Position numbers and translations under genes: made by a program. This document shows, in pieces, positions 57,019 through 61,977 of a stretch of 64,000 nt of DNA. The notes under the pieces were generated by a model. The model did not search any database. It saw only the letters and a program-made list of their open reading frames with translations, and had not been told where the DNA came from. Positions within the stretch are counted from its first letter, which is position 1; each line of letters opens with the position of its first letter. This DNA comes from a virus, in the IMG/VR virus record IMGVR_UViG_3300025012_000042, positions 48,821 to 112,820 of that record; one strand, 5' to 3'.

Positions 57019-58635
57019 TTAATTATTTACCTTTAACTCAATTCCGTGTTCTTTAAATTTATTTATTAAACCCTTCAATCCATGTTTCATATCCTCTGGA
57101 TAAAGTTCTAACAAAGTTAAATTATTGTCCTTACATATCTTTTGTTTTTCTTCTGTTCTTTTTTGGTAAAATTCCTTTCTTTGTAATCCAAAATACTCAA
57201 CAATTATATCGTTCGCTAAAAACCAATCGCATCGTTTATATCCACAACGAATATCATCTGTAAAAACTGAGTAATAAACTTCTTTTTCATATCCAAGACT
57301 ATTATCTATAAATAAATTGGTAATAATTAATTCTGGATGAGATAAACATAAATCATTATTTTTTGATCTATATGTATTATTAGAGAATATATTTCCACTG
57401 TAATTAGGTTCTAACCCTGCCACTTGACAAGCATTAACATAACCATTAAAACAACGTCCATATGTATTATGATGTGCCATTTCTTTATTCTCACTTATTT
57501 CTTGTGCAAGAGGAGTTCTTCCTAGAAACAATGCAAAATCCTTTAAATCCCTTATTAGTTTTTCTTTATCATATGTAATATATAAATGCTCGTCTAAATC
57601 TTTTTTTAATCCAAGTTTTACTCCTTGGGCCATAACCGCATTTGGCGTTCTATTAAAAATGTTTGCCAACTCTTTATTTGTCTTGATTGGGTATTCTTTG
57701 ATAAATATTTCTATATCTTCATCCGACCATCTTATTCTTGACTCCAATCCTAATTTATATCCTTTTGTAACTATTGATGACTCTGTACGATGTGGCAACA
57801 ACATTACTAGTTGTTTTGTAGATTTTTCTCCATAATATTCTTTCAAAATATCAATATCTTCTTCTGACCATTCTGAATTTAGCAATCTTTTTATATTCAA
57901 ATCTGATGCCTTATGTATAATTCCATCTTTATCAAATGGTTTTAATACTTCTAACAATTCCTCCCATTCTGTTGTAGGGTAATATGTTTTAAGATTTTGT
58001 ATTTGTTCTTCAGACCATATATCATTTCTATTTAATTCAATGTTGTATTTTTTAAGAACATAATATATTGAAGCTCCATCACTATATCCATATTTCTTAG
58101 CTATTTCTTGACAATTGATTCCATTCAAATAATCTTGGATAATTAATTGATATTCTTCACTACTTCTTTTTTTTATGTATAATCCTAAGTTGTTTGCTTT
58201 TTTCATTATTATTTCTTTATTACGTTTAATCATTAACTTATTGTTAATATCTTCAATAGAACTATTAGTATAATAATCAATTAAAACTTGCTCATCACAT
58301 TTGTACCACCCACTGTCACCTAATACATCAATTTCTTTTAAAAAACTATTCCAACTTCCCCATTTACGTTCATAATTAACTCCTGATGGATAACCAATTG
58401 TTGGTTTTAATTCTTTTTTTAAAGGATATCTCTCATTTTCATTAAAGAAACGCCAAAATTCAGATATTAAAAATTCTTTAGAAAAATTCGTTATCCTTAC
58501 TAAATGCTCATGATTTCTCTTATCTTTTATTTGTGTTGTTGTTTTACTAAGTTTTTCTGCTAATTCTTCATCTGTCATGACCATATAATTGTCTTTTAAA
58601 AAATCTCTTTCTTCTTTTGACCATATAATTCTCAT
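57019..58635 (-). CDS. Homing endonuclease with repeated Myb/SANT-like domains and Vsr-like nuclease
   Basis: The 538-residue protein has several helix-turn-helix units starting with W-S-K-E-E-R, W-S-E-E-Q-I, W-S-E-E-D-I and W-S-D-E-D-I (about 5-55, 205-240, 255-300, 305-345). These give repeated SANT-like DNA-binding modules. The C-terminal nuclease has C-D-W-F-L-A-N-D-I-I-V-E-Y-F-G near residue 475 and R-T-E-E-K-Q-K-I-C-K-D-N-N-L-T-L-L-E-L. The R-T-x-x-K-x-x-x-C-x-x-x-x-L ending is shared with Vsr-like enzymes. It lies in the tail operon between two structural genes. Confidence 0.7.
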   Translation of the reverse strand: MRIIWSKEERDFLKDNYMVMTDEELAEKLSKTTTQIKDKRNHEHLVRITNFSKEFLISEFWRFFNENERYPLKKELKPTIGYPSGVNYERKWGSWNSFLKEIDVLGDSGWYKCDEQVLIDYYTNSSIEDINNKLMIKRNKEIIMKKANNLGLYIKKRSSEEYQLIIQDYLNGINCQEIAKKYGYSDGASIYYVLKKYNIELNRNDIWSEEQIQNLKTYYPTTEWEELLEVLKPFDKDGIIHKASDLNIKRLLNSEWSEEDIDILKEYYGEKSTKQLVMLLPHRTESSIVTKGYKLGLESRIRWSDEDIEIFIKEYPIKTNKELANIFNRTPNAVMAQGVKLGLKKDLDEHLYITYDKEKLIRDLKDFALFLGRTPLAQEISENKEMAHHNTYGRCFNGYVNACQVAGLEPNYSGNIFSNNTYRSKNNDLCLSHPELIITNLFIDNSLGYEKEVYYSVFTDDIRCGYKRCDWFLANDIIVEYFGLQRKEFYQKRTEEKQKICKDNNLTLLELYPEDMKHGLKGLINKFKEHGIELKVNN

Positions 58636-58871: not shown

Positions 58872-59067
58872 AAAGAAAGGAACTATGTTCTGGTATATTG
58901 CTCTTTATAAGTAGAAGGAAATAATTGCAATAATTCAGCATATGTTGCATGAATAGATTCAAACAAATTGTAATTATACATAATTGCTTTATCGATATCT
59001 AACATGTTGATAATTTGACCAACAAACCATTCTTCATAAAGTTCTGCTTTTGAAATTGTCTGAACCT

Positions 59068-59090
59068 CTGCACGAGCTGAAGCTCGGCAG
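59068..59090. repeat. Right-end hairpin of the element
   Basis: CTGC-A-CGAGC-TGAA-GCTCG-GCAG forms a 9-bp stem with one unpaired base. It is 200 bp past the tnpB stop, where the guide-RNA scaffold of tnpB elements normally ends. Confidence 0.7.
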
Positions 59091-59265
59091 GTTCTTATCT
59101 ATTTAAACTTATCATATACTCTCATTTGTAGGCATTGTATTCATCTACATTTTACACATATATGAACTAATTTAATCCGATAAGAATTTTACTAACAAAG
59201 ATTCCATTGAATCCATTAGCGTTAGCATCAAGCCCGATTCTCGACTTGTTTGGTCAAACCTTTAA

Positions 59266-60735
59266 TTAAATTCCCATACTTGATATTTTCTTGTCATCAC
59301 TTGCTAATAATCTACTAATTTCTTTATCATGTAATATTTTAAAGTTATCAAATTTACTAAAACACAAATCTCTATTAAGTGTATTTAGATTCTTATTAAC
59401 ATTCATAATTAAAAATGAACTATATAAATCCCTTTGTATCTTAAACTCACCAAAATCATTCCATCTCTCTGATAAATCCTTCTTAACATAAGTATTATCA
59501 ATATGATTATATTGACTTGCTTTAATACTATAAGTATCAATCTTATACAATTGTGTTCCATTCCATTTCAATTTATTATCTAAAATTGTTAGAAACATTG
59601 AAGGTGCTTTATTTGCTAAAGATTTTCCAAATCGTTTCTTCTTATTAAATTTACCATCTTTGTTTTTGGTAGTTTTCTTAGCTCTCTTTTGCAATCCTTT
59701 ATAACTCATAGTTTCAACATAGAATTTATCTCCTAAATTCAATATCTCATTTGCTAAAATGTTATGAGATTCTTTTCTCAATGCCGATTGTTTCCTGAAT
59801 AATTCTTTCCTAACATTCTTGATTTTAACGTAATGTTTGCTATAAATCCATTTATCTTTATTTCCTTTGACTATAGTACCATTTTTATTGAATTTATTTG
59901 GATTAGTTGCTCTTCTTGATCTATCCATTTTTCGTTGAAGAAGTTTTACTTCTCTATTAATCTTATTAATTTCAGGTGCTAATTCTAATAACTTTACTTG
60001 ATATTGACTACTAAAAGCAATAGTTTGAGTACCAATGTCAATTCCGACAGGTGATTCAATGCCTATTTTACCTTTAATTTCACCTTGTTTAGTTACTTTA
60101 GTAGGAGGAATGCCTTCCATAATTAACTGTATATAATAATGGCATTTCTCCTTAATCATTTCTCTTTTGATACGACAATACTTTACTTTATCTTGAATTG
60201 TCATATGTGCATAAACATCATTATCCTTAATAATTACAGGAATTTTAAGTCCATTCCAGATTAATTGATTGGATTTAATATCATATTTAATACCACTCTT
60301 ATTCCATTTTCCTTCAATGCTTTTTAATTTGTCATATTTAATGAAATTAACTTTCTTAGCAGCATGAAACATTAATTTTTCAAAAGCTGAATATGCTCTT
60401 GAGGCTAATTTTTGACAAGTTAAACTATCAATATTGTCTTTAAAATGTTTATACGTTGGTTTAACAAATTCATGAAGTGAATATTCATTAATATTATAAA
60501 GTTTATTCAAATCATTAAATTGTTTGTTTCTATCTTTGCCTTTAGGAAGTTTACTAATTTTTTGGTATGCCTTAGATTCTCTCATGTGGTTATATCGTTT
60601 CAATATTTCACCTAAACAAGCATTATATATTTGTCTACATATATTAAATCGTTTATCCAAAATATCTTCTTGATATATTTCAGTACTTAAAGGAAGAGTT
60701 AAAACATAATTTGATTTTGAATTATCTTTTGGCAA
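59266..60735 (-). CDS. tnpB: TnpB-like RNA-guided nuclease without the zinc ribbon
   Basis: TTG 60735 follows GAGGTG by 8 bases. The 489-residue protein has the three RuvC motifs: G-I-D-I-G-T near residue 234 (first Asp), F-Y-V-E-T-M-S-Y-K-G-L near residue 336 (Glu), and I-Q-R-D-L-Y-S-S-F-L-I near residue 433 (last Asp). The two C-x-x-C pairs normally found between the last two motifs are absent; the segment reads S-I-K-A-S-Q-Y-N-H-I instead. The N-terminal half is a basic helical RNA-binding region. Related zinc-less proteins exist in clostridia and bacilli. All three acidic residues remain, so nuclease activity is plausible. Confidence 0.8.
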   Translation of the reverse strand: MPKDNSKSNYVLTLPLSTEIYQEDILDKRFNICRQIYNACLGEILKRYNHMRESKAYQKISKLPKGKDRNKQFNDLNKLYNINEYSLHEFVKPTYKHFKDNIDSLTCQKLASRAYSAFEKLMFHAAKKVNFIKYDKLKSIEGKWNKSGIKYDIKSNQLIWNGLKIPVIIKDNDVYAHMTIQDKVKYCRIKREMIKEKCHYYIQLIMEGIPPTKVTKQGEIKGKIGIESPVGIDIGTQTIAFSSQYQVKLLELAPEINKINREVKLLQRKMDRSRRATNPNKFNKNGTIVKGNKDKWIYSKHYVKIKNVRKELFRKQSALRKESHNILANEILNLGDKFYVETMSYKGLQKRAKKTTKNKDGKFNKKKRFGKSLANKAPSMFLTILDNKLKWNGTQLYKIDTYSIKASQYNHIDNTYVKKDLSERWNDFGEFKIQRDLYSSFLIMNVNKNLNTLNRDLCFSKFDNFKILHDKEISRLLASDDKKISSMGI

Positions 60736-60782
60736 TGAATATTCACCTCATTTCTTTTATTTATTACTTATGTAACATATTA

Positions 60783-60811
60783 ATTATACAATTTATGAGA
60801 ATATATTGCAA
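60783..60811 (-). promoter_or_regulatory. tnpB promoter
   Basis: On the minus strand TTGCAA (60806-60811) and a perfect TATAAT (60783-60788) are 17 bp apart, inside the element. Confidence 0.8.
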
Positions 60812-60854
60812 GTATATTTATTTAATTATTATACTTAATATAAACACCATTCAT

Positions 60855-60877
60855 CCTCACACGCTGAAGCGTGGAGG
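60855..60877. repeat. Left-end hairpin of the element
   Basis: CCTC-A-CACGC-TGAA-GCGTG-GAGG has the same layout as the right-end hairpin, including the unpaired base at the same position. Confidence 0.75.
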
Positions 60878-60959
60878 CTTTCTGGCTGAATTCCTGAATT
60901 CTGTAAATGATTTCTAATTGCATACTTTGGATTTTTCGGTTTTAAAGGACATGACAATA

Positions 60960-61232
60960 TTATTCACCCTTTCTCAATCTTCGTTTTCTCCATCCTTCGA
61001 ATATTTCTTTCTCATCTTCCGTTTCTACGTATATACTATCATAATAATCATAAGTTTCTTGTCGTTTCTTTCTGTCAAAAATAATTTCTGAAAAAGACGT
61101 TGGTTTTACTGCTATCACACTCATTCTTTTCACTCCTTTCCATAACTTTGGTTTGATTCTAGAATCAATAATCTTTACTAATGATTTATGGGAATTACGC
61201 CTAACCCTTCTTGCTCGTGGTTTCACTCTCAT
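60960..61232 (-). CDS. Basic small protein, possible two starts
   Basis: ATG 61232 follows GAGGTG and gives a 90-residue protein starting M-R-V-K-P-R-A-R-R-V-R-R. An internal ATG at 61124 has a stronger site (AAAGGAGTG) and gives 54 residues, M-S-V-I-A-V-K-P-T-S. The N-terminal third is highly basic and could bind nucleic acid. Its stop is followed at once by the start region of the split gene, so the two were translationally coupled. The family is not recognised. Confidence 0.55.
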   Translation of the reverse strand: MRVKPRARRVRRNSHKSLVKIIDSRIKPKLWKGVKRMSVIAVKPTSFSEIIFDRKKRQETYDYYDSIYVETEDEKEIFEGWRKRRLRKGE

Positions 61233-61348
61233 GATAATCACCTCTTCCATACACATTTTACCATAAAATGTAATGAAATGAAATAATGATATTTAAAAAG
61301 AGGGAGAATAAGCTCCCCATAATATTCAAACTAACTTAACCAAAATAA

Positions 61349-61525
61349 TCATAACCTCATCAAAACAAACATCAAACATTTTCTAATAAATCCCTTAACC
61401 AAACCGTCCTTAACTAAAACTTCCTCACCATAATCCTGTTCTACATCCTCTTTGTTAGCATAATACTCTTCATAATTCCATTCATCGTAATGATCTCTAC
61501 AAGGGAATTCAATAATCTTACCCAT
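61349..61525 (-). CDS. Small hypothetical protein, 58 aa
   Basis: The ATG at 61525 lies just after the stop of the preceding gene (TAATTATG), suggesting coupled translation. The product begins M-G-K-I-I-E-F-P-C-R-D and is acidic with a hydrophobic C-terminus (K-C-L-M-F-V-L-M-R-L). No function is known. Confidence 0.5.
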   Translation of the reverse strand: MGKIIEFPCRDHYDEWNYEEYYANKEDVEQDYGEEVLVKDGLVKGFIRKCLMFVLMRL

Positions 61526-61527
61526 AA

Positions 61528-61977
61528 TTAAACCAACTTCTCTATGTATTCATCACCTTTATCCTTATCCATCCTTTTATACTTTTTCCTTATATCTCTC
61601 ACCAGTTTCCTGTGTAAACCCACACAACCCTTCTTTATGTCATTTATCACAATCGAGCTATCACAACTCCCACAAGCCGAATCCCTACCTCTCACAAACG
61701 ATTCTACAATGTCTTCACGACTTTCAAATTCTTCAATTACCCAATCTAAATCAAATCCTGCCAACAAATTTAATTCTCTTAATTTATTAATCTCATTCTG
61801 CAATTCTAAATTAATCATATCGCAATTATCGCATTCGCACTCGAACCAACTAAAAGGATAAAGAGTTGAGTAATAACTAAACTTATAATCTCCTCTACCA
61901 GTTTCTGAGTTGGAGAAAATATTAATTTTACCACCATAATTTCCATCAGTATCCTTAATTACATATGCTTTAATCAT
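61528..61977 (-). CDS. Cysteine-rich hypothetical protein, first gene after the 62-kb promoter
   Basis: The 149-residue protein has two cysteine groups: C-E-C-D-N-C near residue 50 and C-G-S-C near residue 103, a likely zinc site. A charged C-terminus (H-R-K-L-V-R-D-I-R-K-K-Y-K-R) suggests nucleic-acid binding. It is the first gene read from the strong minus-strand promoter at 62039-62067, so it may be an early regulator. Confidence 0.55.
   Translation of the reverse strand: MIKAYVIKDTDGNYGGKINIFSNSETGRGDYKFSYYSTLYPFSWFECECDNCDMINLELQNEINKLRELNLLAGFDLDWVIEEFESREDIVESFVRGRDSACGSCDSSIVINDIKKGCVGLHRKLVRDIRKKYKRMDKDKGDEYIEKLV

What the first reader, a model, noticed from the sequence alone, without database searches (positions are those of the whole stretch)
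58883..60957. tnpB element whose removal restores an 82-codon gene in frame
Seen directly: the two halves of a short gene flank 59060-60885. Joining them at the TTCAG shared by both boundaries gives one continuous frame with correct start and stop. This fixes the element's ends to the base. It also predicts that the tail-region gene is inactive in this copy unless the element is removed or the half products suffice.
Basis: seen in the sequence. Interest (0 to 1): 0.7.

Follow-up and report, generated by a model that had tools for sequence, protein, structure and literature searches.

The report
TnpB transposon in broken phage mazF
A small mobile element carrying a TnpB RNA-guided nuclease gene sits inside a phage gene, but the gene is not an intact 82-codon gene waiting to be restored: it is a MazF-type bacterial toxin gene that has also lost half of its length at the element's edge, so removing the element would leave it broken.

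Summary
The coordinates and frame arithmetic are right: an IS200/IS605-type tnpB element (59060-60885, minus strand) with hairpin ends sits 3' of TTCAG, and its flanks sum to 83 in-frame codons including the stop. The flanks belong to one gene, but not to an 82-codon tail gene. A related phage contig (L003) has a 91%-identical TnpB element at the same TTCAG and keeps 257 bp between the right end and the window's right-hand piece. Those bases encode the core of a PemK/MazF toxin. Two uninterrupted homologues are 160-162 residues long, each preceded by a short gene (putative antitoxin) that is intact in the window. In the window, 257 bp flush with the right end are gone and an extra 8-bp GAATTCAG lies at the left end: net loss exactly 83 codons. 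Removing the element would not restore a working gene. No group I intron and no TnpA were found. One oddity: the toxin-antitoxin flanks are 98.5% identical between the two phages but the elements only 90%, suggesting repeated insertion or element recombination at this site. Otherwise it is an ordinary IS605-family insertion in a disabled phage-borne toxin gene.

The parts
59060..60885 (-). IS200/IS605-type element with tnpB and no tnpA, 1826 bp
   Evidence: ends by comparison with L003 and relatives; hairpin ends
59266..60735 (-). tnpB, 489 codons; RuvC residues D233, E341, D436 invariant in 10 family members; the C-terminal zinc-ribbon cysteines are absent from the whole subfamily
   Evidence: guided_TnpB NF040570 E=2e-26, just below its cut-off; PHROG 506 transposase; alignment A3; fold match to 8h1j TnpB, E 5e-13
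60855..60877 (-). left-end hairpin with one unpaired T
   Evidence: DNA folding, z = -2.7
59060..59096 (-). right end: hairpin with one unpaired T, ending in TTCAG; expected scaffold end of the omega RNA
   Evidence: z = -4.4; 7 of 12 consensus pairs show two-sided changes among 10 right ends
59044..59059 (-). expected 16-nt guide, i.e. the host sequence 3' of the right end; its only exact match in the window is this site
   Evidence: position by analogy with ISDra2 (PMC8612924)
60886..60901 (-). target TTCAG inside a doubled GAATTCAG; L003 has one copy
60886..60957 (-). N-terminal piece of the mazF-like gene (TTG start; first 64 nt identical to L003)
   Evidence: intact homologues begin MPCP at the same place, directly after the upstream gene
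58883..59059 (-). C-terminal third of the mazF-like gene plus stop; 257 bp that precede it in L003 are missing
   Evidence: 99.4% identical to L003; 47% and 58% identical to the C-termini of the intact homologues L018 and L020
60960..61256 (-). intact short gene upstream, putative antitoxin, 98 codons
   Evidence: homologous to the gene directly upstream of mazF in L018 (E 2e-13) and L020 (E 2e-17); no named family

Best explanation
An IS200/IS605-family element that keeps tnpB but has no tnpA inserted 3' of TTCAG near the start of a phage-borne mazF-like toxin gene, the second gene of a putative toxin-antitoxin pair. The lineage of this window also lost 257 bp of the toxin's core flush with the element's right end and has an extra 8-bp GAATTCAG at the left end. 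The toxin is therefore inactivated twice, by the insertion and by the deletion, while the upstream antitoxin-like gene stays intact. The element would move by single-strand excision and insertion with TnpA supplied in trans, and TnpB with the right-end RNA would cut empty copies of the site so that the element is copied back (inferred from ISDra2, not shown here). Precise excision would leave a gene lacking about 83 central codons.
For: L003 carries the same left flank, an element of 90% identity at the same TTCAG, and 257 more bases before the right piece. These bases with the right piece match PemK_toxin (E 1.9e-6, above the gathering score), and the full-length homologue matches at 4.3e-9; a profile finds solved MazF proteins at E 1.5e-10. 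L018 and L020 show the uninterrupted gene, 162 and 160 residues, each just downstream of a homologue of the window's 98-codon gene. In L003 the pieces are 64 nt and 434 nt, in sum a multiple of three and the length of a 165-residue gene. The core is absent from the rest of the record. Element family: catalytic residues; TnpB fold; relatives with a Y1 tnpA next to tnpB; ends.
Against: The left piece is only about 24 codons and resembles the homologues' N-termini just in length, the MxCP start and its position after the upstream gene; L003 is the main support. The window and L003 are metagenomic contigs, so an assembly error at the right end cannot be excluded. Toxin, antitoxin and TnpB activity are all inferred. 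The element is more diverged than its flanks, so this was not one simple insertion inherited by both phages.
Confidence: 0.88

Rival explanations
1. One reading: the flanks are halves of a native 82-codon tail-region gene that becomes whole when the element leaves.
For: Frame, start and stop are as stated.
Against: No uninterrupted 82-codon homologue in 50,697 phage records or in IMG/VR. All relatives are 160-165 codons with a MazF core between the pieces.
Confidence: 0.04
2. The element behaves as an IStron: a group I intron splices it out of the RNA and restores the host message.
For: It lies in the gene's orientation, and IStrons of this transposon family are known (PMC4227781).
Against: No Rfam match to any intron on this stretch even at E up to 5. 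Only 150 nt precede tnpB and about 206 nt follow it. Splicing would in any case give the core-less frame.
Confidence: 0.02
3. Two separate insertions, or an exchange of element copies, occurred at the same TTCAG in the two phage lineages. The window's element entered an allele already scarred (257 bp replaced by GAATTCAG), possibly by TnpB cleavage of an earlier empty site and faulty end joining.
For: Toxin-antitoxin flanks 530/538 identical, elements 1636/1817 (Fisher p 4e-13); synonymous codon changes 2 of 156 against 97 of 488 (p 8e-11). Both junctions differ from L003 exactly at the element's edges. Window and L003 elements show segments where one or other is closer to L005.
Against: The two elements are each other's nearest known relatives and sit on the same nucleotide out of many TTCAG sites, which favours common descent plus recombination inside the element.
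Confidence: 0.4

Closest known systems
IS200/IS605 elements with tnpB, e.g. ISDra2 (Karvelis 2021, PMC8612924) and IS605-type elements of Geobacillus virus E3 and Clostridioides phage phiCDIF1296T
   Same: TnpB with RuvC triad, hairpin ends, insertion 3' of a short T-rich motif without target duplication; relatives in those phages are 59% identical with a Y1 tnpA annotated beside tnpB
   Different: no tnpA here; target TTCAG or TTAG instead of TTGAT; the TnpB subfamily lacks the zinc-ribbon cysteines
MazF/PemK toxins of type II toxin-antitoxin pairs
   Same: PF02452 match of the homologues and of the L003 piece; small gene directly upstream
   Different: the window copy lacks most of the domain; an N-terminal extension starting MxCP; the upstream gene matches no known antitoxin family
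IStrons (group I intron + IS605; PMC4227781)
   Same: IS605-type element lying inside a gene
   Different: no ribozyme found

Membership tests
IS200/IS605 family (tnpB-bearing) | TnpB with RuvC D-E-D residues | tested here: met
   invariant D233, E341, D436; fold match to TnpB structures; NF040570 E=2e-26 but 93 bits against a cut-off of 100
IS200/IS605 family (tnpB-bearing) | subterminal hairpins at both ends | tested here: met
IS200/IS605 family (tnpB-bearing) | insertion 3' of a short target motif without target-site duplication | tested here: met
   TTCAG left of the element in window and L003, element-owned TTCAG at the right end of relatives
IS200/IS605 family (tnpB-bearing) | Y1 transposase TnpA | tested here: not met
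   absent from the element and from the whole record; present beside tnpB in relatives L010, L013 and in phage E3. tnpB-only members are an accepted subgroup of the family (own knowledge)
IS200/IS605 family (tnpB-bearing) | right-end RNA guides TnpB cleavage | not testable with these tools
   needs RNA sequencing or a cleavage assay
MazF/PemK toxin | PemK domain in the intact homologue | tested here: met
   L018 4.3e-9, L003 piece 1.9e-6; MazF structures 1.5e-10
MazF/PemK toxin | complete domain in the window copy | tested here: not met
   about 83 central codons missing; no PF02452 match in the record
Type II toxin-antitoxin pair | adjacent antitoxin gene | tested here: inconclusive
   conserved short gene upstream in window, L003, L018 and L020, but no known antitoxin family
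IStron | group I intron | tested here: not met

The most novel reading that the evidence does not exclude
The site records a failed round of TnpB upkeep: an earlier element left, TnpB cut the empty site, end joining removed 257 bp of the toxin gene and copied in GAATTCAG, and a second element of a diverged lineage entered the new TTCAG. This would be a natural scar of TnpB cleavage followed by re-invasion of the same nucleotide.
Probability: 0.12. Interest if true: 0.5.

Novelty: new member of a known kind. Interest (0 to 1): 0.27.

Why it matters
It shows how an in-frame join across a transposon can mislead: homologues reveal half the gene is missing. The locus is a clear case of an IS605-type element in a phage toxin gene whose upstream partner stays intact. 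The contrast between nearly identical flanks and diverged elements makes it a possible place to study how tnpB elements turn over at one site.

Tried and rejected
Looked for the 82-residue protein in Pfam, PHROGs and phage records: none; these calls used the joined 82 residues as given in the finding, before the toxin homology was known. Group I intron or IStron: no match. TnpA elsewhere in the phage genome: none, and none in the L003 contig. Nuclease-dead TnpB (TldR-like): rejected, because the RuvC triad is invariant. A relocated MazF core elsewhere in the record: none. More intact homologues in plasmids: none; phage records gave only weak hits.

Full report
Setting. The window lies in a 112,820-bp IMG/VR virus record (G000). 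The element at 59060-60885 (minus strand) lies next to the tail module (tape measure 55277-49287).

The element is 1826 bp, the left piece 72 nt, the right piece 177 nt with the stop, and the pieces are in phase: 83 codons including the stop. The element's TnpB is 489 residues. It matches guided_TnpB at E 2e-26, slightly below the curated cut-off. Its three RuvC residues are invariant in ten relatives, and its predicted structure (mean pLDDT 80) matches TnpB-omegaRNA complexes and Cas12f (best 8h1j, E 5e-13; TM-scores are low, about 0.3, so this is a domain-wise match). The ends form hairpins with one unpaired T, and the right-end hairpin shows compensatory changes among relatives. The right end finishes in TTCAG or a near variant in nearly all relatives, so that TTCAG belongs to the element; the left TTCAG is the target, and other members sit after TTAG. 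Relatives L010 and L013, and Geobacillus virus E3, have a Y1 tnpA just upstream of tnpB. The window's element has none, nor does the record.

What gene it is. The 82-residue join finds no family and no phage record. In IMG/VR it finds one other contig, L003, which matches only residues 23-82. L003 has the same left flank and a 91%-identical TnpB after the same TTCAG, but 257 nt separate its right end from the window's right piece. Those nucleotides and the right piece are one open frame that matches PemK_toxin above the gathering score. Searching with it brought L018, an uninterrupted 162-residue gene (PemK_toxin E 4.3e-9). A bacterial-genome scan brought L020, an uninterrupted 160-residue gene in a Bacillota MAG. 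A profile of the three finds solved MazF proteins at E 1.5e-10. The window's right piece aligns with the last 57 residues of both intact homologues. Both homologues start MPCP immediately after a short gene homologous to the window's intact 98-codon gene, matching the window's left piece, which starts (M)SCP three bases after that gene. In L003 the lengths of the two pieces, 64 and 434 nt, add up to a whole number of codons and to the size of the homologues. I did not write out the joined L003 gene; piecewise comparison was enough.

What happened in the window. Relative to L003 the window has +8 bp (a second GAATTCAG) at the left edge and -257 bp at the right edge, both exactly at the element's boundaries; the net is -249 bp, 83 codons, in frame. 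The missing part covers most of the PemK domain, and no PemK match exists elsewhere in the record. So the gene is a double null, and the in-frame 82-codon reading is a by-product (a one-in-three chance), not evidence for a native gene.

Mechanism. By analogy with ISDra2 (PMC8612924), TnpA in trans would excise and insert the element 3' of TTCAG, and TnpB with a right-end RNA carrying about 16 nt of flank would cut empty sites so that the element is copied back. None of these steps is shown here. There is no group I intron, so RNA splicing is unlikely.

An unresolved point. Between window and L003 the toxin-antitoxin flanks are 98.5% identical (530/538) but the elements 90% (1636/1817), p 4e-13; synonymous changes are 2 of 156 against 97 of 488 codons. 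Outer neighbours are about 80% identical and the rest of the phages is largely unrelated. The element's history therefore differs from that of its flanks. Two insertions at one nucleotide, or recombination between element copies, would explain it; some segments of each element are closer to L005, which favours recombination. The edge changes in the window could be a repair scar, but nothing here dates them relative to the insertion.

Verdict. Observation confirmed; interpretation partly supported. An ordinary IS605-family insertion in a phage-borne mazF-like gene that is also deleted, with an interesting element/flank divergence contrast.

Noticed in passing
window 59266-60735 and relatives L004-L015: This TnpB subfamily lacks the C-terminal CxxC...CxxC zinc ribbon in all ten aligned members yet keeps all three RuvC residues; Pfam barely recognises it.
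   Followed up: partly
G000:C1:42884-44480 (locus L002), outside the window: A second, diverged copy of the tnpB element (68% DNA identity) in the same phage record, with a decayed-looking right end.
   Followed up: no
57019-58635: 538-codon gene with homing-endonuclease-associated HNH repeats and helix-turn-helix domains between the broken mazF and the tail genes; L003 has a different, GIY-YIG-like gene and a 537-codon gene near there.
   Followed up: no
58883-61977 against L003 4800-8290: Two otherwise largely unrelated phage contigs share this roughly 3-kb stretch, with the toxin-antitoxin genes far more alike (98%) than the adjoining genes (about 80%), pointing to recent exchange of the cassette.
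   Followed up: partly
60960-61256: Short conserved gene upstream of mazF-like genes with no family assignment (C-terminal motif YYD...E.EK.IFE..R.RR); candidate new antitoxin family.
   Followed up: partly
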